Positions 35,784-53,903 of a DNA stretch of 64,000 nucleotides are shown here, piece by piece. Position numbers and translations under genes: made by a program. The notes beneath the pieces are model-generated. The model had not been told where the DNA came from and ran no database searches. It saw only the letters and a program-made list of their open reading frames with translations. How positions within the stretch are numbered: position 1 is the stretch's first letter; every line of letters starts with the position of its first letter. The stretch covers positions 372,001-436,000 of the forward strand of contig JAADJZ010000021.1 of the NCBI GenBank assembly GCA_011032825.1. The letters run 5' to 3'. The DNA is from Massariosphaeria phaeospora (lineage: Eukaryota; Ascomycota; Dothideomycetes; Pleosporales).

Positions 35784-38700
35784 TCAACCTCTTAAGAATC
35801 TCGCCAGCCTCCCTTTCGGCCTCCGATCACGCATGATCCACGAGCGCAGCCACTCTTCGTACGTCCACTCAGCTGCACCATCCTCTAGATGACTTTCATC
35901 GTTTTCTGGACTCTTGGTGGCATTCCGAGGAGTTATCCAATCCCACGCGTGTTCCCAGAATGTTTTCAGCGTCGCAACGACCCTAGGAACACGATCCAGC
36001 TCCGTGGCCACCCGAGAGGAATTGATGTTTTGCGCAGTATCACGCTTCTCGTTTCCGACGAAAGCCGTATCTTGCCATATGGGTTCCGGTTCCGCAGTCG
36101 GGTTATACCAAGGAGGGTATAATGTGCTCGTAACCGTCTCGCGAGGACATTTGGGAACAGTCGGAGAGGGTGATGGAATAGGCTCTTCAACCCACCCATC
36201 TTCTTCGGAGCTAGACCAGTCACAACAGCAACAGTAGTCCGAGCCGTCTTCTGAGTCAAAGTCCCAGTATCCTCCGTTATTGTGTCCTTCCTCCGATGCA
36301 GAATTCCACTCACAGGAACAGTCCTCCTGAGCATCTCCATTTCCTTCTCCATCATCTTCTTCATCTCCCCACCACCAGTCATAGTCATCATAGCCAAAGT
36401 CTCCCGATCGTGGCCAAGGCCATGGATTCCATGGATCTGGCCAATGATCTCCAGTAGGAAGAGGATGGCTTGGGTCTCCTCCAGTGTTCGGGGTTCCATT
36501 ACCCGGTTCAGGCTCACCTGAAGGTAAAACTGTTGTTATGGATGCATCCCGGCGGCTGCTTGAGCTCTCAATCCGAGTACTTGGCTGATCAGGTGTTGGA
36601 CCGGGAGGGGGAGTCACGACAAAAGTAACAGTAGGGGTCGAGCGTGATAACTCGAGTAGTTCCGAAGTCTGAGATGAGTCGGGGTCTCGCAATGGCGTTG
36701 ATATTGGAGGCTGCTCTCCGTTTGTATCGGTTGGAATTGGAGGTTCCGATGTCGGACTTACAGCTTCGGAAAAGGGTGACGAGGTTGATAGTGGTTGTAA
36801 TCCTGAAGGCGTGTGTTGATCTGGCGGAGTAACAATGGGGGTCGCAGTTGGTACAGGCTGTGTGGATCCATCTGAATTGCTCCGCGGAGGAGAACTCGAA
36901 GGAATTGACTGTGTAGTTTGGACTTGAGGTCGTGAGGTCGTGACAGTAGTCCTAGAGATCCCGGTATTTGAATTCGGCAACGGCAGACTTGATGGAAGAA
37001 GAGTAAGAATGGTTGGCGGACCCTGATCGTTGGATGTTTGGGTCCTCCCTGGTTCAGATGTTACACTCATAGGCCGCGACGCCGTGGCACCGCTTATAGA
37101 TAATGCACTGCTAGGCCCGTTGTCAGGAATTCCCGCTGTACTACCACTCGAGACTGGTATTGGTAGGTTTACACTTTCACTTAGCGACGGCTGAGTCATT
37201 GGAGTGCTGCTCGAGACTGATATTGGTGGGTTTGCACTCTCACTCAGCGACGGGGTGCTTCTCACGATTGGTGTCCGAGAAATTGGAGTCGACCTTGTTA
37301 CTATGACTGGCAAAGAGATTGTTGTTCTGGTGCCTAGTGATCTAGAGATTGGTATTGTCAAGCTTACACTGCTCCTGCTTTGAACAACTGTTTCTTGTCC
37401 AGGTATAAGCGTGCCGCCCGAAACAATTGAGCCAGACACTCGAGTATTTGACAGTGTAGGAGTTCGTGAGGGTGATGAAGAAGGCGTGCTTGTTTGAGAA
37501 GCTTGCGGCGTTTCTATAGAGGTGGGACTGTTCTCGTCCAAAGGACTCGATTGCGGGCCTGAGGTAGGGCGGATGAAGGATCCGGTCGATGAAGGCAGTG
37601 TTGCACCAGGTTGTCGTGAAACCGTGCCAGTCGGTTCTACAACCAAAGTGCTTCCGCTCAGTGGTACTGACTGGGACCCGGAATCTGATAACCCATTTGT
37701 TGGCAGTGTAGGCGGAGCGTTCGAGGGGCTAGGCGAACTCTGAATCGCACAGTTGCCGAAACCGGCTAGACAACCGGTGCCGCAAGCCGCAGCCTCATCA
37801 CTACTACACAGAATGTTAGCCTTGGCCGTACTAACAATGTGAAACTATACTTGCCAGAATCCATTGCGACTGCAGCACTGTCCGAAATTACTTCCAAGGC
37901 ACGTATACCCAAAGAAGCTGCCACAAAGCCCGTTCGGCGAAATGCGGATTACAGGACGTGGCACTTGAACCGATGTAGATGGCAGCGGCAAAACAGTTTG
38001 GCTGCCCTGTGTATTCCGGCTGGGTTCGCTCAACGGTGTACTAGTCATTTGAGACGAGCCTGAAGGATTCGGATCTATACCCGGCGAGCCTCGTGGTGAT
38101 GTAGATGTCAATGAGGATGGACGGGTATTCAGCGTTTCTTGACTACCAGTAGAAACAGTGGGCGGAATGACGACGGGAGTTGCAGATGTGAATGACGACG
38201 ACGATGAAGGGGTATTCGGTGCAGTCTGCCTACTGATAGAGCCGGTGTTTGTCGTAGTCGGTGTTATTACAGTTGACATGCCTTTCACGACGACAGGAGG
38301 GCGAGAGGTCGATGCAACTGGAGTTGATATCCCAGCAGGCGCCGCGCCTCTCTTTAACATCGCGCAGTATCCACTCACAGCTTGTTGGGGACCAAGTAGG
38401 CTTTTGAGGAAGCATGTCTTGGAAGGAGTGTAGACAACTGCGGAGCAGAGAATGTTGTTCGTACAACGTTCGATACATCGCTCAAACGACAAAGAGGTAA
38501 GGTGTTGCCCAAGCAGGTCGCTAAGATAATAGTTGGTATCGCATGCGGCCTCGTAATTCATGGTGGCGTAGGAGTACTCTTGGCCTGCAACAACACCACA
38601 ACAGGTTTTAATACTTTGAGTTGGCTGTGCAGGCTCAGTTCCGCCACTCTCCAAGATTCCAGTGGGTATTAAAGATGAGGTCGGTACACTAGCGCGGGTG

Positions 38701-39404
38701 TCCGGGCTTGAGGGAAGCCCAAATGTTGAAGAGGACGAAATAAGGCTAAGCAACGGTGTAGATATTCTCTGCGACGAAGAGCCTGTTCGAATAGTACTTG
38801 GCGGTAAAATGCTGGTGGGAATCAGTGTTGCAAACGTGTCAGGCTGTACAGACGGTAAAGGCACAACTCCACTTCTTGTCAGTACATTAGTAGGAGTCTG
38901 TAGGGATCCAGACCGGGATGACACTTGACTCAAAGAAGCTGAGGCGGACAAGAAACTTGAGCCAGTAACTGAATTATCGGCCGTGTTACTACTCCTAGTA
39001 ATGGCAGGCTCGGCATCTGAAAGGAAATCGAATGATGCTCCTGAAGTAGGTATATTCGGACGACTTAATGAGATTGTAGAAGGTCTTGCTGTGCTCTGCC
39101 CTTGTTCGATTGGTGTATTTGTTCCAATCGACACACTAGCTTGTGACGAGGAAGAGCGCGGGGTACCGGTATTGGGTGAGCCGCTTGGATCAGGAGAGGA
39201 AGTCAGCGATGGTGGAATACGAACGGTTCCGCTGGACGATGATTGGATAGGACTGAGGACAGGTTCAGACACGGGTGAGCTTGCGACAGTAGAGGCAGTA
39301 GTCAGACCGCTAGATGGTCGCATGGTAGATGAAAAACCACTGTTGATAGGCAGTACTGGAGTCTGAGTATTGCCGGTGCTCCCACTCGTCGTGGTAGGCA
39401 GAAT
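35784..39404 (-). CDS. Giant repeat protein, C-terminal part: PAN-like, hevein, acidic tail
   Basis: Two open blocks, 37855-39404 and 35784-37803, joined by a GC-AG intron at 37804-37854. The first ATG is at 39321-39323. Contents: Ser/Thr stalk; PAN/apple-like module (CCGVVAGQEYSYATMN, FERCIERCTNNILCSAVVY, KTCFLKS; 38350-38615); hevein-type chitin-binding domain (LCGSFFGYTCLGSNFGQCCSRNGF then CSDEAAACGTGCLAGFGNC, eight cysteines, about 37750-37925); a 450-residue Ser/Thr/Pro stalk; and a peculiar tail with WPDPWNPWPWPRSG, an acidic run, DYCCCCDW and a basic end (RRPKGRLARFLRG). Without the splice the frame stops after GFWQV and the hevein domain lacks its last four cysteines. It would bind chitin at the cell wall. 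Confidence 0.65.
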
Positions 39405-42400
39405 TTAAGATCCTGGTGAATCAGAGCTCTTCGAACTACCGCTGATGAATGCTGATGTAGATACGACGCCGAGAAGAGATGATGTCGTTACAATTCTAGA
39501 AGTCTGCGCAATATTCAGGATTCTTCTAGCAGCGCACATGCTCCGCCTCAGGGTCATTCCTCCTATTTGCGACTTGAGAGTGCAGTCGCCCGATGTTGAG
39601 CTCCAGGCTACACCAACACAACTGCTAGATGTTGTGCAGATATCCATACAGTTAGCGAAAGATACTGCGCTCGCGATGGGCTGTGGATTCAAATTGCTTC
39701 CGGAGGATATAGTGTCGCATGTAACCATGAACCCAGGATTCGTTTCTGTGTTGGTGCTCTCATACGTCCCTCCGTTGCCCACAAGACAACAAGACGGACT
39801 AGCCGAAGGCCTCGTAGTTAAGGAGGCCGTGGATGGGACACCTGGCTGTCGAGGTGTCGTTGACACTATTTGGGTTGGTACCCCTGAAGATTTACTACTT
39901 GTGGGAAAAATGGGGAAATTGCTAGAAGAACCTGCGCCAGAGGAGATGCTGTTAGTAGCTGCGCTCGATGATGATGGCAATACAGACATTGACGATTGGG
40001 CCATTGACGTCTGACGAGACAAACTTGACATTGATGGAGTCGGCGTTGATGAAACCGATGTGGGTGATGTTGTCGTCAGTCCGATTAACGATGATATGGT
40101 TGATGTCCGTGGATTCGACATCGGTGAATTTGATATTGGTGGGCTCGCCGTCAATGGGAGTGATGTCGGCAATATTGCTGTTAATGAGAAACTACGACCT
40201 GTACTCTGCAAAGAGCTCGTAGATCCACCCTGATTGGAAGAAGGCGCTCCTGGTGAGCCTGTAGTAATGGAAGATATCCTCCCCGATCCGCTCGATGAGA
40301 ACATAGAGTTTGAGGGCTGGGGGCTGCCGATGGGTCCGCTTGTAGGAGCAGACGATGGTCTCGAGGTGCCAGTCATTCCTCCGTCTCCGCCAATGAGACT
40401 CGAAGACATGTTATCGAAAATCCCCCCTGCGGTTGTACTCGCAGTTGAGGCAGCGCTTGTCGCAGTGGTTGAAGATTGCAATCTTGATGTGCTACTTAGT
40501 CCTCCGCCTCCACCAAGAAGACTTGAAATCAGGTCCTCGAGAACACCGCCTGCCGTTGTAGTATTCGATGGAGAAAGGATTCTAGTTATAGCCTGTGACC
40601 TTGACGTGCTTGTTACTACTCCGGTGCCGCTAATGAGACTCGAAGATATGTCAATAGGGCCCGACCTTATACTTGTGTCCGCAGATGCAGCAGTAGAGCG
40701 GCTAGTATCTCCAGATTCGAGTATGCTTCGTGTAGTCGCAGTGACTGGTTGGGAAGTGGAAGCTGTGATCTGTGGTCTTGATACACTCGTTGCTCTTCCG
40801 CTTCCACTTACGAGACTCGAGATTATGTTTGTGAGACTCCCTCTTGTACTTGAACCCGCAGCTGGAGTAGTGGATCTGCTCACAGTTCCAGACGGCGATA
40901 TTGCCGTGCTAGTTAAGCCTCCGTCGAAAAGACCTGATACCAACTCATCAAGAAGACCTCTCGCACCTTTACTTGTGGAGAGAGTGCGTAGAATACTCGT
41001 AGTCGTAGATATTGGCCTGATCGAACTAGTGGTCAATCTTCTCGTAGTTCCAGATGGCGATTTTGCTGTGCTAGCTACGCCTCCAAAGAAAAGACCCGAA
41101 AATAGCTCGTCAAGCACGCCTCCTGCACTTGTACTGATGAATGGAGGTTTTGAAATAGTCGAAGTCACAGATGTTGGCCTAGTCGTACTAATCGTTCCGG
41201 TTCCGCCAGGACTAACAGGAGTAGTCGGCCGGCTTATGCTTATAGGTCCAGCAGTCGTTACCCCGGGAAGTTTTGAGGAGCTAGACGTCTGTCCTGGTCC
41301 GCCAAGAAGGCCGGAAAATAGACCGCCAAGCACCCCTGCTGTACCAGAGGTTGTAAGCTGAGATCGTGTCAGCACTGACCTTGCCGAACTCGTTGGCGAG
41401 CTTGTAAATAGTGAGACCTGAGAGATGCGCGATGTCAACATGGTGCTTGGAACTGAGATCCGTCCGGTGCCAGTGTTTGTTGCCTGACTAGGCACAGTAG
41501 GTGATGAAACTAAACCAGAGCCGGGAGATGAAGCTGAGATACCACTAGATATTGCTGTAGGTTGACGACATAATGAACCTCCGCAATCAAACAAGTTCAA
41601 ACTCAGATCTACATCAATAAGCGGTGGTGCAACTGGTGATGAAGTTGCTCGCGGAGAGGCTGAAACACCGGGTGGAGTACTGATAACCACGGAACTCGCG
41701 GTTTGAGGAGATGACGTGACCGAGGCAGATACAACACCACCTATCGACGTACTCGATGGCGATGAGGAACATGGAGCACCCGATGCGCAGTTCAATAGGC
41801 CAAGACTCAAGGTGATATCTAGCAAAGGCTGAGTATTTCTCGATGACGCTACTGGCTGACGAGAGGATGGTGTTAGCATTGAACTATCACTCGACAGCGA
41901 GGATGCTGGTATCGTTCCGATAATAGCGCTATTTGAAGCTCGAGAGGATAGGTCAATCAGTGGAGGAATAGAGCTAGAGGAGATTGATGAACGACTAGGT
42001 GTACCAATGATCAAAGTGTTCGACGTGCTGCTGAACCTTATTGGGGTAGAAGAATATACTGGGCATGGAGTTGTTCCGCAGTTAAGAAGGCCCAAACTTA
42101 GATTGACATCGATGAGCGGCGGGTTCGATCTCGCAGGTGTTGGCACGGTGAGTAGTGAACGGGTCACAGTAAACAGTGAAGTGTCTGCCATGCTTGACTG
42201 GATTTGTGTCGATGATGTAGGGCCTCCCGGGATGATTGTCGGGCTGGACCCGGCTCCGGTGGAAGGGATTCCGTTGCATGACGTGCCAACGCAGTTCAAC
42301 AACCCAAGACTTAGGTCAACTACAACGAGAGGAGAATTGCTTCTCGTAGACACCATCGGAGTAGTAGATATAACAACGCTCCTACCTGTCGAAGAACGGG

Positions 42401-42887
42401 TATTTAGCAGATTATCCAGCGGTCCCAGGCTCAGGTTGACATCCAGAAGTGGTGGAGTACTTCTCAACGAGGCACTTGAGGCGATCGATGACGCTGCACG
42501 TGTAGGAATGCTCAGTGGTGGAGCAGAACTTATCGGTGCCGCCGCGGTAGTTGCAGTAGGAGTTGACACTTGACTCGTTTGTCCAATGGGTGAGGACGGC
42601 GCTGTAGGCACTAGCCCACTCGATGTACGACCTGTACACGAGGGACCTGCGCAGTTGAGCAGTCCTAGATCCAAATCAACATTGATGAGTGGAGGGTTGC
42701 TCCTAAGCGCGCTGAATGACGTGGAAGATCTCGTAGTAAGTAGACCAGTCGGCTGACTCATGATCGAAGCTGAGTGGGATGGACTGGGCGGGACAGGGCC
42801 TATAGTATCTTGTCCCGTGCTGCTACTTGGCGTTGCAGGAATGACAGTACTCGCGGGGATTGGTCCACTACTTATACGAGTCGTAGC
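39405..42887 (-). CDS. Giant repeat protein, middle ORF with first PAN-like module
   Basis: Open from just after TAG 42888 to TAA 39405-39407; the first ATG is at 42759-42761 (1,118 residues). It begins with eight SLGLLNC-type units, each ending in a CxxxxC pair (GLLNCAGPSC, GLLNCVGTSC and so on). A Gly/Leu-rich array with a GGLFSGLLGG core and a Ser/Thr stalk follow. Near 39520-39795 lies a compact cysteine domain (CCLVGNGGTYES, MVTC, FANCMDICTTSSSCVGVAW, GDCTLKS), which fits the PAN/apple pattern of a C-x3-C helix and a following C-x-LK strand. There is no signal peptide of its own, which supports its being part of the upstream gene. Confidence 0.6.
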   Translation of the reverse strand, partial: ATTRISSGPIPASTVIPATPSSSTGQDTIGPVPPSPSHSASIMSQPTGLLTTRSSTSFSALRSNPPLINVDLDLGLLNCAGPSCTGRTSSGLVPTAPSSPIGQTSQVSTPTATTAAAPISSAPPLSIPTRAASSIASSASLRSTPPLLDVNLSLGPLDNLLNTRSSTGRSVVISTTPMVSTRSNSPLVVVDLSLGLLNCVGTSCNGIPSTGAGSSPTIIPGGPTSSTQIQSSMADTSLFTVTRSLLTVPTPARSNPPLIDVNLSLGLLNCGTTPCPVYSSTPIRFSSTSNTLIIGTPSRSSISSSSIPPLIDLSSRASNSAIIGTIPASSLSSDSSMLTPSSRQPVASSRNTQPLLDITLSLGLLNCASGAPCSSSPSSTSIGGVVSASVTSSPQTASSVVISTPPGVSASPRATSSPVAPPLIDVDLSLNLFDCGGSLCRQPTAISSGISASSPGSGLVSSPTVPSQATNTGTGRISVPSTMLTSRISQVSLFTSSPTSSARSVLTRSQLTTSGTAGVLGGLFSGLLGGPGQTSSSSKLPGVTTAGPISISRPTTPVSPGGTGTISTTRPTSVTSTISKPPFISTSAGGVLDELFSGLFFGGVASTAKSPSGTTRRLTTSSIRPISTTTSILRTLSTSKGARGLLDELVSGLFDGGLTSTAISPSGTVSRSTTPAAGSSTRGSLTNIISSLVSGSGRATSVSRPQITASTSQPVTATTRSILESGDTSRSTAASADTSIRSGPIDISSSLISGTGVVTSTSRSQAITRILSPSNTTTAGGVLEDLISSLLGGGGGLSSTSRLQSSTTATSAASTASTTAGGIFDNMSSSLIGGDGGMTGTSRPSSAPTSGPIGSPQPSNSMFSSSGSGRISSITTGSPGAPSSNQGGSTSSLQSTGRSFSLTAILPTSLPLTASPPISNSPMSNPRTSTISSLIGLTTTSPTSVSSTPTPSMSSLSRQTSMAQSSMSVLPSSSSAATNSISSGAGSSSNFPIFPTSSKSSGVPTQIVSTTPRQPGVPSTASLTTRPSASPSCCLVGNGGTYESTNTETNPGFMVTCDTISSGSNLNPQPIASAVSFANCMDICTTSSSCVGVAWSSTSGDCTLKSQIGGMTLRRSMCAARRILNIAQTSRIVTTSSLLGVVSTSAFISGSSKSSDSPGS

Positions 42888-43250
42888 CTAACATGAGGGT
42901 CCTGAACACTCCAATATTCCGAGACTGAGATTGATGTCCAGAATAGGAGGAATGCTTTTCACCAAGGTTGAAGACGATCTGATGTTTGACAAGCTTGGTA
43001 GTCCGACTAGTTGGCTCGTCGAGATTGGAGATACGGGAACACTGGAAGATGCTGACGCTCCGCCCGCGCTCGAGGACAACGCGCTCGATTCCGGAGGATT
43101 TTGAGAACTTGACGAACTAGGTCTGATCGGACATGGCGAGGTTCCACAGTCCAGCAAACCCAGATCCAAACTGATGTCAACGGGTGGGGGTTGCTCCTCA
43201 CAGGCGTCACGGTAGGCCTAGATGTTGGGCTAAAAGCTGGCTGAGTCGAA
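42888..43250 (-). pseudogene. Giant repeat protein, fragment between frameshift and TAG
   Basis: After TGA 43253 the original frame reads SRPTVTPVRSNP and then garbles. Shifting by one at the five-G run 43186-43190 recovers PVDISLDLGLLDCGTSPC, the same unit as the intact RSNPPLIDVDLSLGLLNC copies on either side. The frame then runs to SGPSC and the TAG at 42888-42890. The match to sister repeats is what shows that a base has been lost. Confidence 0.65.
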
Positions 43251-43252
43251 AT

Positions 43253-46200
43253 TCACAAGGTAGAAGATGGCAAAACACCGGTTGTGCTTGCCTCCGAGGT
43301 CACACGCGGTAGGCTACTAGCTCTTGCGTTCGATGTCCCGCCTGGGAGGGGTAGGTCTAGGCTCAAGTTGATATCAACAAGAGGCCGTGCGCTCGATCGG
43401 CTTGACGAAAAGGATTGTCCTGTTGTGCTTAGCTGAACGGGAGTACCCACCGAGGTTTCGTGGATCGGTGAAGAAGTTGTGATAGTCCCTACTGAATCCT
43501 CATCTGAGCTCAATATCGGAGATGCTGAGGCTAGGCTAGTAGCGATACTAGATCTGCTCGTAGTTCGACACCCGGGAAATCCGCAGTTCAAGAGATCGAG
43601 ACTCAGACTAAGCTCAATGAGTGGCGGCCTTGATGAGGAGAGTTCCTGCATTGAAGATGTCGCACCAACTTCAGTCGGCACCCCATTAAAAATCCCCGTA
43701 AGTGCGTCAAGGCCGACAAGTGGACTTCTGGTAGCAGTGGCGGATAATGGGTCGGAAAGTATCGAACTAAGGATAGATGGTACGTTTAAAGCCCCAAGGA
43801 GCTCATCAAGGTCGATAAGAGGCTTCACTGTTGACATTGTTGTAGTTGGAGAACCCGTAGACTCCGGGGAAGGAGTAGTGTAGCTAGTCAGCATACCAAG
43901 GAGACTGCCTAGATCAATAAGAGGTTTTGGGAATGGCGTCTCAGTAGCCAAACGACTGTCGCTTATCGAAAGAGAGGACATGGAGCCACTGAGAAGTCCA
44001 AGGACCTCATTGATGTCAATGAGAGGCTTGTCAGCTACTGTCGTCGAAGATGGAGAATCCGTATTCGTAGGAAATTCTGTAAGAGGTCCAGTCAAAACTC
44101 CCAGGCCATCGTCAAGGTCAAGAACAGGCTTTCCGGCCGGCGATGTTACACTGGATGAGCCAGTACTCGCTGGAACAGCAGATACCAGACTGTTCAGAAT
44201 CCCCGGAATCCCACTGAGATCGATAAAAGGTGTTGTAGATGACGTGATGGTAGCAGAAGGATCCGTGCTCGCCGGGAAAGAAAACTCCGGACTGTTCAGA
44301 ATCCCCAAAATATCGTCAAGATCGATAATAGGCTTCGCAGATGAAATCGCAGTTGCAGAAGCATCTGTACTCGTTGGAAGATCAGGTGAGCCATTCAGAA
44401 TCCCAAGAAGCTCGTCGATATCATCAAGGGGCTTCATAGAGGGAGTCGCCGTACTTGATGGGCCGGTGCTCGCAGGAGTGGAAGGAGTTGGGCCATTTAG
44501 AATCCCGAGGAGCGCATCGAGGTCAACAAATGGCTTTTCAGCGGATGTAGTTGTTGAGATAGGCCTGGAACTCTCTGATGTGGATGGCACTCCGTTCAGC
44601 ATACCGAGATCCAGAGTCGCTGCGATGAGAGGCGATATTGTAGGTCGACCTCCGAGAGAAGATAGTACACCGCCTAAGAGGTCCAGATCCAGATTGACAA
44701 GCGGTTTCGTACTCGATGCCGATCTGGACAAGCTAGGGACTGTGCTGGCTTGGTTACTTCCATCATCTGTATTTGGCAGGCTGGTGAACTGAGAAGTGGA
44801 CGTCCGAGGGATTAGTGTTGAAGGACGTGATATCATGCCAAGATCTACGCTGAGCAACGGCGGGTTTGCGATGGAGGTCATTGTCGAGACTCGGACACGA
44901 GATGGCATGGTAGTGGGTGTTGCTATGGCCGAGAACGTTGACTTCGCTGTCTGCGGAAGCCCAATACCAAGATCAAGATTCAGCAAGTTTCTGCTAGATG
45001 GATTTGCTTGCCCAGAAATCGTAGTCGATGCTGCTTGTTCCCCCAAGATATCAAGGTTGCCCGACAAGATCCCTAGGTTCAGCGATGCTCCCAGCAAAGG
45101 CCCATTTGACCTCACAGGCTGGGTCGTAGTACCTATCTCACGTCTTGTCGAGGTCGAGGTCGAGGTCGAGAGAACATGGGACACTTGGCTGACGGGCAAG
45201 GGAAGATCGTCGATGGGCTTTGGTGTAGGCACCAGGGCACCTGGAGTGAGACTAAGCCCCAAGCTCACATCTACTAAGGGCTCCTGGGTCGTGCTCGAGA
45301 GTAGGCCTAAAGAGAAGTCCGAATCTATGAGGGGCGAGTTCACTAGACTTGACAACACCTCCGAAGGGGTAGTCGGAATTCCGCCGGTTGCAGTTTGCGA
45401 GATGGGATTATAACTTGGACTAGTATTCAAGTCAATATCCAACGGACTTCGAGTGGACTGTGTAATCACAGGAGTGTTTGAACCCAGGCCTAGCGCGGAG
45501 AGAGCATTCTCCAACAAATTTCCCTCGTCGTCTAAGATCGGAACACCAGATGGGGCTGGTAGTAGTGACCCTGAACGAGTGAGTAGATTTCCAAGACCAG
45601 AGAGTAGATTGTCAATATTGTCTCCAGCAGTCGACATGGTATTAGGTAGTGGAACAAGGTCTGGTGTCTCTGTGCCAAATGATCGCGTAGTCAAAACCTC
45701 AGATCTGGTGAGAAGACCTCCAAGCAAACTCTCGACGAGATCATCTCCAGCAGTTAAAATCGTAGTAGGTAGCGGAATAAGTTCTAAGGTCTCCATAGCA
45801 GGTGATCGCGTAGTCAAACCTCTAGAACTAGTGAGAAAGCCACCAAGATCGGAAAGTAGATTGTCGACGATGTTATCTGCAGCAGTCAGAACCGTCGTAG
45901 GCAACGGGACAGGCTCTATTGTTTTCGTATCAGATAGCGACGTGGTTGAAACTCGAGTTCCAGCTAAAAGGTCTCCAACACCGGAAAGTATGTCCTCGAC
46001 AATATCATCTCCAGCAGGAAGAATCGTTGTAGGCAACAAACCGGGCTCCAAGGTTTCCGTACCAGATGACCGTGTGACTGGAACCCCGGATCCAGTCAAA
46101 AAGCTTCCAAGACCGGAAAGGACATTGTCGACGATATTGTTGCCCGCGGTCAGAACCGACGTAGGTAACGAGATGGATTCAACTGTTCCTGTACTAGATG

Positions 46201-49200
46201 ATAGTATGATTGGAACCTCAGATCCCGCCAAAAGGCTTCCAAGCCCGGAAAATACATTGTCGACGATATTGTCTCCCACGGTCAGCACCGTCGTAGGTAA
46301 CGATGTTCTAGTATTAGATGATAGTGTGATTGGAACCCCGGATCCCGCCAAAAGACCTCCAAGTCCAGAGAGCACATCGGCCACCACGTCTCTTCCGCTA
46401 GTGATGGTCGCTGAGGACGACTTAGTACCTAAGGTTTCAGAAACAGAGGACTGTGAGTCTGAGGTGGAAGGTGCCAGAAAACCTCCGAGTCCAGAAAGTA
46501 GATCTTCTACAACATTCTCCCCACCACTAGCGGTTGCAGTGGACGAAGTACCTAGCGTTTCAGAGCTGGGCTGTAGGGAAGATGGTACCAGAAAACCTCC
46601 AAGTCCAGAAAGTAAGTTTTCAACAACATTCTCCCCACCACTAGCGGTTGCAGTGGACGAAGTGCCTAGCGTTTCAGAACTAGATAGTGCTAGGAGACCT
46701 CCAAGTCCAGAGAGCACATTGTCCACAACGTTGTTCCCACTGCTGGTAGTTGCAGTAGACGATGAAGTACTCGGCGTCTCAGACTCAGGATGTGAGGTAG
46801 ATTGGGTTAGAATACCTCCCAGGCCAGAGAGCAGATTGTCCACGACATTATCCCTACTAGTAGTAGGAGACGATGTACTCGACGTTTCAGAACTGGGCTG
46901 TAAGGTAGATGGGGCCAGAATACCCCCAAGACCAGAGAGCAGATTGTCTACAGCGTTTTCTCCATTAGTGACGGTTGCGATATTCGACGAAGTAGATCTT
47001 CGTGTTTCGAAACCAGATTGTACGATAGAGGGTGGCAGAAGGCCTCCAAGGCTAGACAGTAGGTTGTCCACGATGTTGTCCTCGGCAGCCATAGTCAGGC
47101 TAGGCAGTAATGTAGGGCGCAGATCTTCGGTATCAAAGGGCGGTGATTCTAAAACAGGCGTTGGTAGAAGACCTCCGAGACCAGACAGCAGATTTTCCAC
47201 TATGCCATCTTCAACAGCCACAGTTAGGATAGGCAGCAAAGTGGTTCCTATATTTCCGGTATCAAAAGACTGTGACTCTAAGATGGTCGTTGGTAGAAGA
47301 CCTCCAAGACCAGACAGCAGATTTCCCACTATGCCATCTTCAGAGGCCACAGTCAGGCTAGGGCCGCTAGGCAGTAATGTAGGTCCTAGATTTCCGGTAT
47401 CAGAGGGCTGTGAATCTAAGGTGGTCGGTGCCAGAAGACCTTCAAGACCCGACAGCAGATTGTTCATGATGCCATCTTCAGCAGACACAGTCGGTGAAGG
47501 CAGTAAAGTAGACCGGGATTGCGTATTTGAAGTAGATGGTGCCAGAAGACCTCCGAGACCCGACAGAAGATTATCCACAACGTCATCTTCAGCAGCCATA
47601 GTCGCTGAAGGCAGTAAAGTAGGTCCTAGAGTTCCAATATCCGGGGGCTGTGAGCCTGAAGTAGATAGTGCCAGAAGACCTCCCAGACCAGAGAGCAAAT
47701 CATCCACAACACTATTCTCAGTAGCCACCGTCGGAGTAGGCAACAAGCTAGGTTCCAGACCCGAGAGCAGATTGCCCACCACGTCATCGTCCGCGGCCAC
47801 AGTCGGTAAAGGCAGTAAAGTAGGTCCTAGTAAGTCTAAAGCAGACGGTGTCAGAACACCTCCCAGACCAGAGAGCAAGCCATCCACAACATTATTCTCA
47901 GTAGCCACCGTCGGAGTAGGCAACAAGCTAGGTTCCAGCGTCTCGATGTCAATTGGTTGTGTGGGCATGATGGATGCCAAGATAGAATTCGCAGGTGAGA
48001 AAAGGACGTTGCCAATACCAGAAAGAATATTCCCCAGTAGATTTCCGTCCGGAGTGACCGCTGGAGAATCTGTAGGCAAACCCGTAATGGCAGGTTGACT
48101 TGAAGAAAACGGCGTGGCTTCGAAAATTCCCGATTCACTAAGAAGTCCTCCAAGACCTGAGAGTATGTTCCCCACCGGATTCGCATCGCTACTGACCGCC
48201 GTAGAGCTTGGCGAGGCAACTATTGGCGACTCTGTTATCGAGGCTAATACTGATGACAAGATCGCTGCTTGTGAAGATGCAGGGCCAGAGATCAGATCGT
48301 CGACGATATTGCCATCTAAAATAGACGAGATTGGACCGCTAAGACCTGAGAGTATGTTTCCCACCGGGTTCGCATCGCTGCTGAACGCCGTAGTGCTTAT
48401 TGGCGACTCTGTTATCGAGGCTAACACCGATGACAAAATTGCTGCTTGTGAAGATACAGGTCCAGAAAGGACATCGCCTAGACCAGAGAACAGGTCGTCG
48501 ACAATATTGCCATCTAAAACGGACAAAACTGGACCGCCAATACCTGAGAGTATATCTCCCACCAGACCGTCTTCGTCACTGACGGGCGTGGAGCTCGGCA
48601 AGACAGATATCGGCTGATCGGTAATCGAGGCTAGAATCGAGGATAAAAACGCTTGTTGTGAGGATCTGGGCCCGTCAAGAACATCATCAATACCGGAAAA
48701 TAAGTTATCGACAACATTGCCATTTGAAACCGACGAGGTTGTTGGACTGCCGAGACCCAGGCCTGAGAGTACGTTTTCCACCAGGTTGTTTCCGCTACTG
48801 ACGACTGCCGTAGAACTCGGCAAGATAGATATTGGCCGATTGGTGATCGAGGCTAGAATCGAGGATAAGACCGCTTGTCGTGAGGACCTGGGACCGCCAA
48901 GAACATTGCCAATACCGGAGAACACATCGTCGATAACATTGCCATCTGTAGAGCTTGATGCGGTTGGACTGCCGAGACCGAGGCCTGTCAGCAGATTCCC
49001 CACCGGATTGTCTTCGCCATTGACAGTTGTGGGTACCGGTGAGGCGAGTGATAACTGATCCGTGCTCGAAGCCAGATCCAATGATGGAGGCGCTATTTGT
49101 GATATTTTAATCTCCGAAACCACATCACCTACACCAGAAAGCAGATTCCCTATGAGGTTGCCATCCCTGGAATTTGACGGTGTCGGATTACCGAGAAGAT

Positions 49201-52200
49201 CAGGGTTGAGATCAATATCCAACGGAGGGATATTGCTGCTAAGGACTTGATTTCCCGTTGTAACTTGTGAAGTTTGACCCGGCACAAGTGGTTCGAGACC
49301 CGTGAACGTACCCAGGGCCAAGGGGCTAGAGGGACCACCGCCGAGATCAAGTCCAAGTCCTGACAATATCCCAAGTAGTGGGTTTCCGTTCGCAGTGATT
49401 GTGGCTGGAGTAGTTTCCGCTGACGACTCCGTAGTAGTTGACGTGAACACCACAGAGGTAAGGGTAATACCGGGGTTTAATCCTAGAGCAGAGAGAAGCC
49501 CAAGAAGACCATTCATACTCTCTTCATCAGCATTTCGGCCTGGACGCCCCGATGATGTCGCAGAAACAGGTATAGAAGAAGAACGGGCGCCTAAGCTGGA
49601 TCCGAGATCAAGATCTATTCCAGAAAGCGGTCTATCGCTGCGCGTGAGCCGAGTGAATACCGAATCTTCCAAACTTGTGGGGGTCGGAAATACTGGTAAC
49701 TGCACCGTCGTCGGCAAGGAAGTCAGAGAGGGTAATCCGTAAACAATACCCCCCAGAAGTGATCCGAGATTTACATCAACGAGCGGGTTCTGACTGGTGG
49801 GGCTCAGAGCGCTTGGGGCACTCGAATCCTCCGAACTTGTGGGAATCGGAGATACTGGTAACTGCACCGTCGTCGGCAAGGAAGTCAGAGAGGGTAATCC
49901 GTCAACAATACCCCCCAGAAGTGATCCGAGATTTACATCAACGAGCGGGTTCTGACTGGTGGGGCTCAGAGCGCTTGGGGCACTCGAATCCTCCGAACTT
50001 GTGGGAATCGGAGATACTGGTAACTGCACCGTCGTCGGCAAGGAAGAAAGAGAAGATAATCCACCAACAATACCGCCAAGAAGTGATCCAAGATTTACAT
50101 CAACGAGCGGGTTCGGACTGGCGCTCGGGGCGCTCGGGGTTCTTGAATCCTCCAAGTTTGTGGGAATCGGAGATACTGGTAACTGCGCCGTCGGCAAGGA
50201 AGTAAGAGAGGGTAATCCGCCAACGATACCCCCAAGAAGTGATCCAAGATTTACATCAACGAGCGGTTTCTGGCTTGCGCTCGGAGTACTCGAACCCTCT
50301 AAGCTTGTGGGGATCGGAGGTACTGGCAACTGCACCGTCGGCAAGGAAGTAGGAGAAGGTAGTCCGCTAACGATACCCCCAAGAAGTGATCCGAGATTCA
50401 CATCAACGAGCGGTTTCTGACTGGCGCTCGGGGCGCTCGAATCCCCCGTCGGGACTACGGAGGAAGGAATGGTGGTCACAGCCGTAGCTGGCGATGCTAT
50501 ATTTGCAGGCAGTAGCGCTAACAGCGAGCTTCGAGGAAGATAGATACCCAGATCCACGCTCAAGTATGACAGTAATTGCTCCAGGTGATTGTCTAGTGAC
50601 AAGCTAGTGGGCACGCCGGGCTGGCTAGTGATAGACGCGGCGGAGGCAGAATTCTGCGGGGGAATTGCCTCGGACGATGGCGTCAGGGATGCAGAAGCGC
50701 TTGACCCTGGGCCTAAGCCTAATAAGCCCAGAACCGAGTCTAGGACGTTGTTTGCTGGAGCTATAGGCGTGGTCGGTATTGAAGCTACTGGCGAAGTAGA
50801 GCTTGGTGGGGTAGCGATATTTGTTGGTCGAGTCGACGCCGCTGTTGCAGCGCCTACGCCTAACAAGTCCAGGATCGGGTTCAAAACGTTGTTTGTCGGA
50901 GTAGCTGGCAGGCTTGTCGAAGCTATTGGCGAAGTAGAGCTTTGTGGGGTAGCAATATCTGTTGGTCGAGTCGACGCTGTTGCAGCGCCTGATTCAGGAC
51001 CTACGCCTAACAAGTCCAGGATCGGGTTTAAAACGTTGTTTGTCGGAGTAGCTGGCAAGCTTGAGACAGGAATCAAGGGTGATGAGCGGACAGACGTGCT
51101 GCTCCCGGAGCCAGGTCCGAGAATCGAGCCCAGATCCAGAAGTGGAGCGTTGCTTTGCGAAGGAAAAAGCACGTTGGTGGCTGTGCTAGATGTGGAACGT
51201 GTCGACGTACTGCCTCCCACAACGGATCCTGGATTCAAGGTCAAGTCCAGAAGAGGAGTGTTGCTCGACGCACTGCCGAGCTGAACGCCCAAGCTCAAGC
51301 CCATAATCGGATTATTGACTTGTGAAGTGGAGAGGAGATTCGTCACTGTGCTAGCTGCGGAACGCGTCGCAGTGGTGATCAACGCGCTGGACGGGACTAT
51401 TCCAATGACGGGTCCCAAGTCAAGACCCAGACTGACCCCAATGGGTGCATTATTCCCAGCAATTGGTATTGGAGATGATGATTGGAAAACAGATCTTGGT
51501 ACCGTGATCGTGGATAGAGTCTGCACAATCGATATAGGAGGAAGTTGTATAGGAGCGGAGGCCGCGAGGACGCTCGAGAGTAGACTGCCCTGTGGTAAAG
51601 ACTGAGCCGAAGTTCCCGAGGGCAGAGTCGACACAATCGATATAGGGGGAAGCTGTATAGGAGCGGAAGCCGCGAGGGCGCTCGAGAGTAGACTGCCCTG
51701 TGGTAAAGACTGAGCTGAAGCTCCCGAGGATGGTTGTGCGCGCGATGTCGTTGCCGCTCCCGAGGACAGAGTCTGCACAATCGATATAGGGGGAAGCTGT
51801 ATAGGAGCGGAGGCCGCGAGGACGCTCAAGAGTAGACTGCCCTGTGGTAAAGACTGAGCCGAAGCTCCCGAGGATGGTTGTGCGCGCGATGTCGTTGCCG
51901 TTCCCGAGGACAGAGTCTGCACAATCGATATAGGGGGAAGCTGTATAGGAGCGGAGGCCGCGAGGACGCTCGAGATGAGACTGCCCTGTAGTAAAGACTG
52001 AACCAAAGCTCCCGAGGACGGTTGTGCGCGCGACGTCGTTGCCGCTACGGGGCTCGCGGTTGAAGAGCTAGATGCAAGGCTCGAAGAGGGTATTCGCGAT
52101 GAAGATGTCGGGGGAGACAGAACGCCTGGCAGAACTCCACCTAGAATCTGCGGTCGAGCAGTAGCAACTTGGGCAAAAAGAAGCCAGGTCAAGACGTGTC

Positions 52201-52240
52201 TTAGACAGCTCCGAAAAGAACTGACCCCTAGTGGTACCAT
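43253..52240 (-). CDS. Giant repeat protein, intact N-terminal ORF (2,995 aa)
   Basis: An unbroken 9-kb frame, single exon. MVPLGVSSFRSCLRHVLTW.. is a signal peptide with likely cleavage after VATA. Residues about 20-250 hold four 48-residue repeats (GSLLSSVLAASAPIQLPPIS core) that are nearly identical in DNA. Next come three DLLGVG repeats, then six KPLVDVNLGSLLGGI units (49.67-50.45 kb, DNA period about 160). The central 1,300 residues are more than thirty diverged units with a VVDNLLSGLGGLL core. The last 500 residues carry about ten KPLIDLDELLGILN units and the first SLGLLNC-type units. There is no catalytic domain and almost no cysteine until the end. If translated alone, it would be a secreted protein without the PAN and chitin-binding modules. 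Confidence 0.8.
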   Translation of the reverse strand: MVPLGVSSFRSCLRHVLTWLLFAQVATARPQILGGVLPGVLSPPTSSSRIPSSSLASSSSTASPVAATTSRAQPSSGALVQSLLQGSLISSVLAASAPIQLPPISIVQTLSSGTATTSRAQPSSGASAQSLPQGSLLLSVLAASAPIQLPPISIVQTLSSGAATTSRAQPSSGASAQSLPQGSLLSSALAASAPIQLPPISIVSTLPSGTSAQSLPQGSLLSSVLAASAPIQLPPISIVQTLSTITVPRSVFQSSSPIPIAGNNAPIGVSLGLDLGPVIGIVPSSALITTATRSAASTVTNLLSTSQVNNPIMGLSLGVQLGSASSNTPLLDLTLNPGSVVGGSTSTRSTSSTATNVLFPSQSNAPLLDLGSILGPGSGSSTSVRSSPLIPVSSLPATPTNNVLNPILDLLGVGPESGAATASTRPTDIATPQSSTSPIASTSLPATPTNNVLNPILDLLGVGAATAASTRPTNIATPPSSTSPVASIPTTPIAPANNVLDSVLGLLGLGPGSSASASLTPSSEAIPPQNSASAASITSQPGVPTSLSLDNHLEQLLSYLSVDLGIYLPRSSLLALLPANIASPATAVTTIPSSVVPTGDSSAPSASQKPLVDVNLGSLLGGIVSGLPSPTSLPTVQLPVPPIPTSLEGSSTPSASQKPLVDVNLGSLLGGIVGGLPSLTSLPTAQLPVSPIPTNLEDSRTPSAPSASPNPLVDVNLGSLLGGIVGGLSSLSSLPTTVQLPVSPIPTSSEDSSAPSALSPTSQNPLVDVNLGSLLGGIVDGLPSLTSLPTTVQLPVSPIPTSSEDSSAPSALSPTSQNPLVDVNLGSLLGGIVYGLPSLTSLPTTVQLPVFPTPTSLEDSVFTRLTRSDRPLSGIDLDLGSSLGARSSSIPVSATSSGRPGRNADEESMNGLLGLLSALGLNPGITLTSVVFTSTTTESSAETTPATITANGNPLLGILSGLGLDLGGGPSSPLALGTFTGLEPLVPGQTSQVTTGNQVLSSNIPPLDIDLNPDLLGNPTPSNSRDGNLIGNLLSGVGDVVSEIKISQIAPPSLDLASSTDQLSLASPVPTTVNGEDNPVGNLLTGLGLGSPTASSSTDGNVIDDVFSGIGNVLGGPRSSRQAVLSSILASITNRPISILPSSTAVVSSGNNLVENVLSGLGLGSPTTSSVSNGNVVDNLFSGIDDVLDGPRSSQQAFLSSILASITDQPISVLPSSTPVSDEDGLVGDILSGIGGPVLSVLDGNIVDDLFSGLGDVLSGPVSSQAAILSSVLASITESPISTTAFSSDANPVGNILSGLSGPISSILDGNIVDDLISGPASSQAAILSSVLASITESPIVASPSSTAVSSDANPVGNILSGLGGLLSESGIFEATPFSSSQPAITGLPTDSPAVTPDGNLLGNILSGIGNVLFSPANSILASIMPTQPIDIETLEPSLLPTPTVATENNVVDGLLSGLGGVLTPSALDLLGPTLLPLPTVAADDDVVGNLLSGLEPSLLPTPTVATENSVVDDLLSGLGGLLALSTSGSQPPDIGTLGPTLLPSATMAAEDDVVDNLLSGLGGLLAPSTSNTQSRSTLLPSPTVSAEDGIMNNLLSGLEGLLAPTTLDSQPSDTGNLGPTLLPSGPSLTVASEDGIVGNLLSGLGGLLPTTILESQSFDTGNIGTTLLPILTVAVEDGIVENLLSGLGGLLPTPVLESPPFDTEDLRPTLLPSLTMAAEDNIVDNLLSSLGGLLPPSIVQSGFETRRSTSSNIATVTNGENAVDNLLSGLGGILAPSTLQPSSETSSTSSPTTSRDNVVDNLLSGLGGILTQSTSHPESETPSTSSSTATTSSGNNVVDNVLSGLGGLLALSSSETLGTSSTATASGGENVVENLLSGLGGFLVPSSLQPSSETLGTSSTATASGGENVVEDLLSGLGGFLAPSTSDSQSSVSETLGTKSSSATITSGRDVVADVLSGLGGLLAGSGVPITLSSNTRTSLPTTVLTVGDNIVDNVFSGLGSLLAGSEVPIILSSSTGTVESISLPTSVLTAGNNIVDNVLSGLGSFLTGSGVPVTRSSGTETLEPGLLPTTILPAGDDIVEDILSGVGDLLAGTRVSTTSLSDTKTIEPVPLPTTVLTAADNIVDNLLSDLGGFLTSSRGLTTRSPAMETLELIPLPTTILTAGDDLVESLLGGLLTRSEVLTTRSFGTETPDLVPLPNTMSTAGDNIDNLLSGLGNLLTRSGSLLPAPSGVPILDDEGNLLENALSALGLGSNTPVITQSTRSPLDIDLNTSPSYNPISQTATGGIPTTPSEVLSSLVNSPLIDSDFSLGLLSSTTQEPLVDVSLGLSLTPGALVPTPKPIDDLPLPVSQVSHVLSTSTSTSTRREIGTTTQPVRSNGPLLGASLNLGILSGNLDILGEQAASTTISGQANPSSRNLLNLDLGIGLPQTAKSTFSAIATPTTMPSRVRVSTMTSIANPPLLSVDLGMISRPSTLIPRTSTSQFTSLPNTDDGSNQASTVPSLSRSASSTKPLVNLDLDLLGGVLSSLGGRPTISPLIAATLDLGMLNGVPSTSESSRPISTTTSAEKPFVDLDALLGILNGPTPSTPASTGPSSTATPSMKPLDDIDELLGILNGSPDLPTSTDASATAISSAKPIIDLDDILGILNSPEFSFPASTDPSATITSSTTPFIDLSGIPGILNSLVSAVPASTGSSSVTSPAGKPVLDLDDGLGVLTGPLTEFPTNTDSPSSTTVADKPLIDINEVLGLLSGSMSSLSISDSRLATETPFPKPLIDLGSLLGMLTSYTTPSPESTGSPTTTMSTVKPLIDLDELLGALNVPSILSSILSDPLSATATRSPLVGLDALTGIFNGVPTEVGATSSMQELSSSRPPLIELSLSLDLLNCGFPGCRTTSRSSIATSLASASPILSSDEDSVGTITTSSPIHETSVGTPVQLSTTGQSFSSSRSSARPLVDINLSLDLPLPGGTSNARASSLPRVTSEASTTGVLPSSTL
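45147..45170. repeat. GAGGTC hexanucleotide microsatellite
   Basis: About four units of GAGGTC lie inside the giant gene; on the coding strand they give alternating Ser-Thr. Confidence 0.6.
49670..50450 (-). repeat. Six-copy tandem repeat in the giant gene
   Basis: Units of roughly 150-165 bases, each encoding KPLVDVNLGSLLGGI..LPVSPIPTS. Copies starting near 49836 and 49998 are almost identical at the DNA level, which points to recent amplification or gene conversion. Confidence 0.75.
51590..52060 (-). repeat. 144-bp tandem repeat near the N-terminus of the giant gene
   Basis: Near-identical units of 144 bases (for example GAGGACAGAG at 51762 and 51906) encode a 48-residue block with core GSLLSSVLAASAPIQLPPIS; one unit is shorter. 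Length polymorphism between strains is likely. Confidence 0.75.
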
Positions 52241-52900: not shown

Positions 52901-53903
52901 CTACATTCTTGAAGTTCGCAGCTGGGTACTGTCCATCCGATTGCCTTCGTCCGCTTGCTCTTGCACACCGAGATCGGGAAACCGCGCGGGCATGATGCGG
53001 CGCGGAGAGGCGCGAGACACCACATTATACTTGTCGAAATCGGTGACGCCAGTTTTGCGCAGGAAGTCTTCGTCGAGCTCCAGGCAGCCGTTGACTTGGG
53101 AGGCGGGCGCCCGCAGCATGGCAAGAATGGCGTCGGAGTAGATGGTCGGCTTGCGCAGGTCGCCGGCATTTTCCCGATCCAGGTTCTCTGTCGCCGCGGA
53201 CTGGATTGCGGTGGCTGGCCAAATGCTGGTGATGGCCATGTCCTTCTTCTCTTCGCGTCCCCAGTCCATGGCCAGGCCTTTGGTGAGGACGCTCATGCCA
53301 ACCTTGCCCATGGCGTATGCTGTCTTTCCGCGAAAGAATCGCGAGTAGATGGGCGGGCTCACGACGATAATGCGGCCTTTCCAGCCATTCTCTTTGAAGC
53401 GAGGGAGCGACGCCTGCACGGCACCGTACAGCCCCTCCACATTGACGCGCTGCATCAGCTGGAAGCGCTTCATGGGCGTCTGCTCGACTGGAGCCCACCA
53501 GATTGCGCCCGAATTGTACACCAGCACGTCCAGACGGCCGTAGATGGCGCTGGTCTGGTCGACCATCCGCTGCACGCTGACATGGTCGCGCGTGTCCACG
53601 GCCACAGCCGCTGCCTCGCCGCCCGCTTCTCGGATCTCTCGTTCGACGGTGCTGATGGTGGACTGCGGCGAGTTCGGGTCGGGAGGGAATGGGTGCACTG
53701 CAGACGCGTCCGAGGTGCTTTTGGCAGCAACGACGACTTCGATGAGTCAGCAAGCTGGATAAACCACCTGAACACCATCAATCATCACACTCACCTCTGT
53801 AGCCGTTCTTCGCCAGGTCAATGGCAACCTGCCTGCCAATTCCTCTCGATGCGCCCACCACAAGCGCGACAAGCGCGGCCTCCTGTTTATGAGGGGTGGT
53901 CAT
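52901..53903 (-). CDS. Short-chain dehydrogenase/reductase (HSDL2-like)
   Basis: Model: complement(join(52901..53736,53795..53903)), 314 residues, one 58-nt intron. It is a classical NAD(P)-binding Rossmann enzyme: GASRGIG near residues 18-24, VYNSGA in place of NNAG, VVSP for the catalytic Ser strand, and YAMGK for the Tyr-Lys pair. The segment SPPIYSRFFRGKTAYAMGKVGMS followed by a conserved tail (RRIMPARFPDL) is the form seen in fungal relatives of HSDL2. No signal peptide; no peroxisomal SKL at the C-terminus (ends TSRM). Substrate unknown, an alcohol or acyl-related carbonyl being possible. Confidence 0.9.

What the first reader, a model, noticed from the sequence alone, without database searches (positions are those of the whole stretch)
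35784..52240. A 16.4-kb single-gene unit for a ~5,470-residue secreted repeat protein with PAN and hevein modules
Seen: signal peptide at one end; six or more distinct tandem-repeat families in series; two PAN/apple-like cysteine modules; a hevein-type chitin-binding domain; and an acidic Trp/Cys tail, all in one orientation. Known: hevein domains bind chitin, PAN modules bind protein or sugar, and Ser/Thr stalks extend fungal adhesins. Inference: a giant wall-anchored or wall-coating adhesin that holds on to chitin by its C-terminus. I know of no described fungal protein with this order of parts.
Basis: partly seen in the sequence, partly recalled or inferred. Interest (0 to 1): 0.88.

Follow-up and report, generated by a model that had tools for sequence, protein, structure and literature searches.

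The report
Interrupted giant fungal surface-protein gene
A fungal genome carries a 16-kb stretch that looks like one giant gene for a secreted, repeat-built cell-surface protein with sugar- and protein-binding modules near its end, but in this sequence the gene is interrupted at several places, so the full protein is probably not made as one piece.

Summary
The anatomy is real. On the minus strand, 52240 to 35784 is one run of coding-like sequence: a signal peptide, at least seven repeat families in Ser/Thr/Pro-rich sequence, two PAN/apple modules, a hevein (CBM18)-like module split by a 51-nt GC-AG intron, and an acidic Trp/Cys tail without a visible GPI signal. 'One gene of ~5,470 residues' does not hold as read here: three in-frame stops (TGA 43253, TAG 42888, TAA 39405) and one frame change near 43190 remain, none covered by a strong-consensus intron. 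The only frame that starts with the signal peptide ends after 2,995 residues and lacks PAN and CBM18. Real decay, a null allele or local sequence errors are all possible; evidence on assembly quality is mixed. The CBM18-like module misses Pfam's cut-off and has lost two of four binding-site positions, so holding chitin by the C-terminus is doubtful. PAN with Ser/Thr stalks, and apparently PAN with CBM18, occur in other genes of this genome. No relatives of three searched pieces were found, without a control for fungal coverage. Ordinary in kind, unusual in size; moderate to low interest.

The parts
52157..52240 (-). Signal peptide (first 28 residues, cleavage after VATA by eye)
   Evidence: Translation; no other ATG in that frame upstream to 52387. 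By eye, no predictor run.
43253..52240 (-). Piece A: 2,995-codon open frame, S+T+P 37.7%, ending at TGA 43253-43255
   Evidence: no Pfam or NCBIfam family up to E 1
51516..52046 (-). Repeat family 1, 48-residue unit (LAASAPIQLPPISIV)
   Evidence: TRF period 144/108; lag 48; 3 strict motif copies
50711..51063 (-). Repeat family 2, 49-residue unit (NNVLNPILDLLGVG)
   Evidence: TRF; lag 49; 3 strict copies
49661..50441 (-). Repeat family 3, 54-residue unit (PLVDVNLGSLLGGIV)
   Evidence: TRF 162/147; lag 54, identity 0.65; 5 copies
48233..48987 (-). Repeat family 4, ~74-residue unit (LSSILASIT)
   Evidence: TRF 222; lag 74; 4 copies
45581..49144 (-). Repeat family 5, 36-46-residue unit (VDNLLSGLGGLL), overlaps family 4
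   Evidence: Lags 36-46; 24 copies
43787..44707 (-). Repeat family 6, 34-residue unit (KPLIDLDELLGIL)
   Evidence: Lag 34; 7 copies
41583..43627 (-). Repeat family 7 with Cys (PPLIDVDLSLGLLNC, usually a second Cys 4-5 residues on); runs across the TGA, the frame change and the TAG
   Evidence: 7 strict copies; Cys pairs
43253..43255 (-). In-frame TGA inside coding-like sequence
   Evidence: no strong-consensus intron; weak candidates
43160..43217 (-). Frame change (frame 0 to frame 2) inside a family-7-like unit
42888..42890 (-). In-frame TAG
   Evidence: no consensus intron
39405..39407 (-). In-frame TAA (1,160 and 519 open codons on its two sides)
   Evidence: no consensus intron; weak candidates
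39507..39809 (-). PAN/apple module 1
   Evidence: PAN_1 21.1 bits, cut-off 21.4; 29-30% identical to module 2, E 2e-07 for that single comparison
38325..38621 (-). PAN/apple module 2
   Evidence: PAN_1 24.7 bits excised, cut-off 21.4; factor XI apple domain E 0.014; Foldseek top hits largely apple/PAN-type
37749..37925 (-). Hevein/CBM18-like 8-Cys module, split by the intron
   Evidence: Pfam 13.1 bits, cut-off 27.8; own-genome CBM18 profile 43.0 bits, best of 500 Cys-fixed shuffles 22.7
37804..37854 (-). 51-nt GC-AG intron (GCAAGT ... GCTAAC ... TAG); removes the stop at 37845-37847
   Evidence: main support is that its removal gives the 8-Cys module
36123..36452 (-). Acidic Trp/Cys segment (110 residues: 30 D+E, 11 W, 7 C)
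35784..36122 (-). C-terminal end with KR and RR dibasic sites, four low-confidence helices, no visible GPI signal, stop
   Evidence: GPI signal judged by eye

Best explanation
This is one ancestral gene for a giant secreted, probably O-glycosylated surface protein of a filamentous fungus. A signal peptide sends it out; thousands of residues of Leu/Gly-containing repeats in Ser/Thr/Pro-rich sequence form an extended coat or stalk; near the C-terminus two PAN/apple modules, a degenerate CBM18-like module and an acidic Trp/Cys tail bind wall or matrix glycans and proteins, so that the protein sticks back to the wall without a GPI anchor (inferred). In this genome the coding frame is interrupted by three in-frame stops and a frame change between 43255 and 39405, so it is most likely a recently broken gene or null allele; the only frame with a signal peptide now ends after the repeats and lacks the binding modules. 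Shown: anatomy, frame interruptions, lack of strong-consensus introns there. Inferred: glycosylation, surface location, wall binding, brokenness in the living organism.
For: Open pieces in order on one strand. A codon model trained only on the first and last pieces ranks the expected frame best in 37 of 39 bins of 120 nt around the three junctions, with the change from frame 0 to frame 2 near 43190; the 2 exceptions overlap the GC-AG intron (the bins above 43255 and below 37802 belong to the training pieces). The only strong-consensus intron on this strand in the span is the GC-AG one, against 24 scan hits elsewhere on that strand of the window. Family-7 repeat units lie on both sides of TGA, frame change and TAG. 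PAN by profile and fold match; CBM18 type by own-genome profile. Frames of 4,010 and 1,936 codons around AMP-binding domains are open elsewhere, and in 210 kb of sampled genome no unexplained stop pair like the TAA was seen.
Against: No transcript, read-level or sister-species data. The pieces downstream still look fully coding, which fits very recent decay (about 0.7% neutral change for three nonsense mutations) but equally a handful of sequence errors; the frame change lies beside a run of C. Assembly evidence is mixed: 4 of the 15 AMP-binding matches listed contain one or two in-frame stops, not resolved into introns or errors (14 of 63 first-look candidates were scored). The intron scan is noisy: it also gives 7 hits on the opposite strand of the span. 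Weak GT-AG introns that jump the stops can be drawn (5 candidates at the first junction, 9 at the second). No relatives found, so conservation is untested. A generic codon model had no power to confirm the frames.
Confidence: 0.48

Rival explanations
1. The gene is intact in the fungus and codes one ~5,470-residue protein; the interruptions are assembly or sequencing errors.
For: Downstream pieces keep coding character and repeat register; the frame change lies beside a short run of C; domains stay recognisable; 4 of 15 AMP-binding matches elsewhere also contain in-frame stops, cause unresolved.
Against: Four separate events within 4 kb, three of them in-frame stops; frames of 4,010 and 1,936 codons elsewhere are open; in 210 kb (21 loci, 20 of them on this contig) 0 of 43 same-frame stop pairs had at least 300 open codons on both sides without a consensus intron.
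Confidence: 0.29
2. The living gene is the 2,995-codon frame alone (52240-43253), a secreted repeat protein without PAN or CBM18; the rest is its decaying former C-terminus.
For: Uninterrupted 9-kb frame with signal peptide; every interruption lies at or beyond 43255.
Against: Absence of stops upstream is not significant: about 1.8 expected at the downstream rate (computed), so none has a chance near 0.16. The C-terminus shows little other decay.
Confidence: 0.13
3. Several introns with poor splice sites remove the stops, so the gene would be multi-exonic and intact.
For: In-frame GT-AG candidates exist at both junctions.
Against: All have poor donors (judged by eye against GTRNGT), and the first-junction ones, 386-416 nt, would cut out coding-like repeat sequence.
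Confidence: 0.07
4. Two or three separate neighbouring genes.
For: Stops separate the pieces.
Against: Later pieces show no signal peptide at their first Met by eye and start inside repeat or module sequence; repeat family 7 spans the first three breaks.
Confidence: 0.03

Closest known systems
Blastomyces BAD-1 (PMC6023273 passages; PMC3708853 start of abstract in the search listing)
   Same: Secreted, highly repetitive, no GPI signal; [quoted passage not shown] Cys in repeats.
   Different: BAD-1 has 24-residue Trp/Cys repeats and an EGF-like chitin-binding domain; here the repeats are Leu/Gly/Ser/Thr-rich, the module is CBM18-like with a degenerate site, PAN modules are present, and the whole span is several times longer.
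Ustilago Rep1 repellent (PMC4617103 passages)
   Same: Secreted, repeats of 34-55 residues with a hydrophobic part.
   Different: Rep1 repeats are cut apart at Kex2 sites; piece A has only two [KR]R sites in 2,995 residues, and hydrophobic patches are no denser than in shuffled sequence.
Oomycete CBEL (PMC3532174 passages)
   Same: Non-enzymatic wall protein joining carbohydrate-binding modules and two PAN/apple modules; wall and adhesion roles.
   Different: CBM1, small, no giant repeat stalk, not a fungus.
Other PAN and CBM18 genes of this same genome (L013, L034)
   Same: CBM18 + Ser-rich linker + PAN; signal peptide + PAN + Ser/Thr repeats.
   Different: Largest frames 737 and 1,069 codons; CBM18 on the N-terminal side in L013; no Leu/Gly repeat arrays seen in the translations.
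Typical GPI-anchored fungal adhesins (Als, Flo, Hwp; PMC6023273 passages)
   Same: Signal peptide, Ser/Thr-rich tandem repeats, long stalk.
   Different: No N-terminal ligand domain found, no visible GPI signal; the whole span would be about twice the 600-2,500 residues given there for many of them.

Membership tests
PAN/apple domain (PF00024) | Profile score at or over the curated cut-off | tested here: met
   Met by module 2 only when excised: 24.7 vs 21.4; inside its 519-residue piece 21.2. Module 1 not met: 21.1 excised, 15.8 inside its piece
PAN/apple domain (PF00024) | PAN fold | tested here: inconclusive
   Low-confidence model (pLDDT 54); Foldseek's top PDB matches are largely apple/PAN-type (SML-2, plasminogen, NK1 and MANEC as PAN folds: recalled), best E 0.015, 0 of 141 at 0.001 or better
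CBM18 / hevein (PF00187) | Profile score over the curated cut-off | tested here: not met
   13.1 vs 27.8 bits after removing the intron
CBM18 / hevein (PF00187) | 8-Cys framework and similarity to the genome's own CBM18 modules | tested here: met
   43.0 bits vs best of 500 Cys-fixed shuffles 22.7; profile from the 7 modules that a Cys pattern found in 10 of the 12 loci then held
CBM18 / hevein (PF00187) | Binding-site residues (hevein Ser19, Trp21, Trp23, Tyr30; recalled) | tested here: not met
   Here S, N, F, A: two of four lost. In the 7 own-genome modules position 21 is aromatic in 6 and position 30 is His or Tyr in 7
GPI-anchored fungal adhesin | C-terminal GPI-addition signal | tested here: not met
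   C-terminus is basic, no hydrophobic tail (read by eye, no predictor)
Fungal adhesin (broad) | Signal peptide, Ser/Thr-rich tandem repeats | tested here: met
   signal peptide by eye
Fungal adhesin (broad) | Mediates adhesion | not testable with these tools
   Needs experiment
Rep1-type repellent | Kex2 sites between repeats | tested here: not met
   2 dibasic [KR]R sites in 2,995 residues
Intact single gene | One open frame after removal of consensus introns | tested here: not met
   3 stops and 1 frame change remain

The most novel reading that the evidence does not exclude
A lineage-specific giant hyphal coat protein of about 5,470 residues, built from at least seven serial repeat families with Cys pairs that could cross-link it, and held to the wall by PAN and CBM18-like modules and an acidic Trp/Cys tail without a GPI anchor; intact in the fungus or in its relatives, with this copy a null allele or a mis-sequenced one.
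Probability: 0.25. Interest if true: 0.5.

Novelty: new member of a known kind. Interest (0 to 1): 0.3.

Why it matters
If intact in relatives, it would be a very large GPI-less fungal surface protein and a test of whether long Leu/Gly repeat coats with PAN and hevein modules replace other hyphal coat proteins. If broken, it shows how fast such giant surface genes come and go. Either way it is a caution: a 16-kb span that reads as one gene at a glance does not read as one frame.

Tried and rejected
RIP as the cause of the stops: the composite RIP index of the span is negative (-0.22; rest of the window -0.38), though one 2-kb bin (46001-48000) is slightly positive at 0.07; not supported. Dense hydrophobic patches as a self-assembly signal: 71 in piece A against a mean of 64 and a maximum of 74 in 300 residue shuffles; rejected. 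Kex2-released repeat peptides: rejected.

Relatives: three protein searches gave none beyond the window's own tail ORF (first 500 residues, 7,976 candidates scored, none at E 0.001; last 257 residues, 825 candidates, 1 hit = itself; PAN 2, 237 candidates, none at E 1). No positive control for fungal coverage of that database was run, so absence is weak evidence. Paralogs in the own genome: none for the tail (13 candidates) or the 1,160-residue piece (7 candidates); the PAN 2 piece matched itself and two places over its CBM18 part; piece A did not complete. The PF00024 search of the own genome found nothing, not even the window's modules, and its controls were silent, so it is uninformative; the PF14295 search gave 3 matches, 2 over the cut-off, and also missed the window's modules.

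A generic codon model had no power. The C-terminal row was computed out of frame and is discarded; one search replaces it. Structure of the tail: pLDDT 45.5, uninformative. Papers: none with PAN domain + CBM18 + fungal + adhesin, none with five of six terms on giant Ser/Thr-rich secreted repeat proteins. Of 9 papers listed, three were seen in passages (PMC2409186, PMC4480369, PMC3532174); of 8 listed (11 found), one (PMC4617103); of 15 listed (41 found), one (PMC6023273); of 5, none beyond the listing.

Full report
What was checked. The window is part of a 753-kb contig of an unnamed 42.08-Mb genome in 51 contigs (contig length). Intron-split genes and DUF5321 and Zn2Cys6 domains point to a filamentous ascomycete (inference from recalled distributions). 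The finding spans 35784-52240 on the minus strand. The stated ends are exact: ATG 52240, stop 35784-35786.

Anatomy. A first frame of 2,995 codons opens with MVPLGVSSFRSCLRHVLTWLLFAQVATA, a signal peptide by eye, and is 37.7% Ser/Thr/Pro with 15.3% Leu and 9.3% Gly. Tandem Repeats Finder and a protein lag scan show successive arrays with periods of 48, 49, 54, 74, 36-46 and 34 residues; strict motif counts are 3, 3, 5, 4, 24 and 7, plus 7 copies of a Cys-bearing unit (PPLIDVDLSLGLLNC) that begins near the end of this frame and continues downstream. The recurring units are real. Hydrophobic patches as such are not special: 71 against a mean of 64 and a maximum of 74 in 300 shuffles.

Modules. 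Two segments of about 100 residues (39507-39809 and 38325-38621) are 29-30% identical to each other. Module 2 passes Pfam's PAN_1 cut-off when excised (24.7 vs 21.4) but not inside its piece (21.2); module 1 misses it (21.1 excised, 15.8 in its piece). A two-row AlphaFold model has low confidence (pLDDT 54), but Foldseek's best PDB matches are largely apple, plasminogen, SML-2 and NK1 structures, which I recall as PAN-type folds; none of 141 matches reaches E 0.001. The hevein-type module appears only after a 51-nt GC-AG intron (37854-37804) is taken out. It misses Pfam's cut-off widely (13.1 vs 27.8), yet scores 43.0 bits with a profile of seven CBM18 modules of the same genome, against at most 22.7 for 500 shuffles that keep its Cys. 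At the sites matching hevein Ser19, Trp21, Trp23 and Tyr30 (recalled) it has S, N, F and A, and the Gly that follows the fifth Cys in all seven is Ser here. I therefore call it CBM18-like with doubtful chitin binding. The tail has a 110-residue segment with 30 D+E, 11 W and 7 C, then a basic end; no GPI-type hydrophobic end is seen.

Is it one gene? Not as read here. Five open pieces lie in a row. A codon model trained only on the first and last pieces ranks the expected frame best in 37 of 39 bins around the junctions, crossing from frame 0 to frame 2 near 43190; the two exceptions overlap the GC-AG intron. Scores in the PAN 1 part are low (down to -0.23), though still the best of three frames. 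A strong-consensus intron scan finds only the GC-AG intron on this strand in the span, against 24 hits elsewhere on that strand of the window, but it also gives 7 hits on the opposite strand of the span, so single hits mean little by themselves; the intron rests mainly on the Cys framework it yields. Candidate GT-AG introns over the other breaks (5 and 9 listed) have poor donors. In 210 kb sampled from the same genome (21 loci, 20 on this contig), 43 same-frame stop pairs had at least 100 open codons on each side; one of them had at least 300 on both sides and it has a consensus intron, whereas TAA 39405 has 1,160 and 519 and none. A generic codon model was uninformative. On assembly quality the AMP-binding search is mixed: frames of 4,010 and 1,936 codons are open, but 4 of 15 listed matches contain one or two in-frame stops that I did not resolve into introns or errors, and only 14 of 63 first-look candidates were scored. 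Three nonsense changes correspond to about 0.7% neutral change: recent decay, a null allele or local error cannot be told apart here. RIP is not indicated.

Relatives and novelty. No relative of the first 500 residues, the tail or PAN 2 was found beyond the window's own ORF, without a control for fungal coverage. The own genome holds no second copy of the tail or of the 1,160-residue piece; piece A could not be searched. It does hold what appears to be one gene with CBM18 modules, a Ser-rich linker, a PAN module (PAN_1 21.4 bits excised, cut-off 21.4) and a CBM4/9-like part below its cut-off (L013), and one with signal peptide, PAN_4 (33.8 bits) and Ser/Thr repeats (L034). Both domains are counted in several ascomycete proteomes or secretomes in PMC2409186 and PMC4480369 (passages). 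So the parts and their pairing are ordinary; the size and the serial arrays are unusual.

How it would work. By analogy with BAD-1, which is secreted and rebinds the surface through a C-terminal chitin-binding domain without a GPI signal (PMC6023273 passages), and CBEL, which joins two PAN modules and carbohydrate-binding modules in a wall protein (PMC3532174 passages), the ancestral protein would be a coat or stalk that binds back to wall glycans or proteins by its C-terminal modules. With the frame as it stands, the secreted product would lack those modules. Confidence in the whole reading is moderate.

Noticed in passing
L013:2018-5094 (G000:C51, about 1371018-1374094): Apparently another secreted gene of this genome with several CBM18 modules (by eye; introns inside the modules), a Ser-rich linker, a PAN module and CBM4/9-like segments (below cut-off).
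   Followed up: partly
L034 (G000:C3:1207515-1207679): Signal peptide (by eye), PAN_4 module over cut-off, then several hundred residues of Ser/Thr repeats in a 1,069-residue frame.
   Followed up: partly
G000:C49:670318-682747 and C24:287949-289004: Four AMP-binding domains within 12.5 kb, one of them with an in-frame TAA inside the match, and one in a 4,010-codon frame on C24: likely nonribosomal peptide synthetase genes.
   Followed up: no
window 2226-2990 (+): ORF with a 168-bp tandem repeat (2.3 copies) and a sub-threshold HIP1 clathrin-binding match, probably coiled coil.
   Followed up: no
window 33241-33486: 114-bp tandem repeat (2.2 copies) inside the Zn2Cys6 ORF 32758-33747.
   Followed up: no
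window 45636-48098 (+): 820-codon ORF antisense to the repeat array, no Pfam match; probably a mirror of the low-stop repeat sequence.
   Followed up: partly
window 28660-30294 (+), 25201-26643 (-), 52904-53746 (-): Neighbours: DNA photolyase/cryptochrome, alkaline phosphatase, short-chain dehydrogenase.
   Followed up: partly
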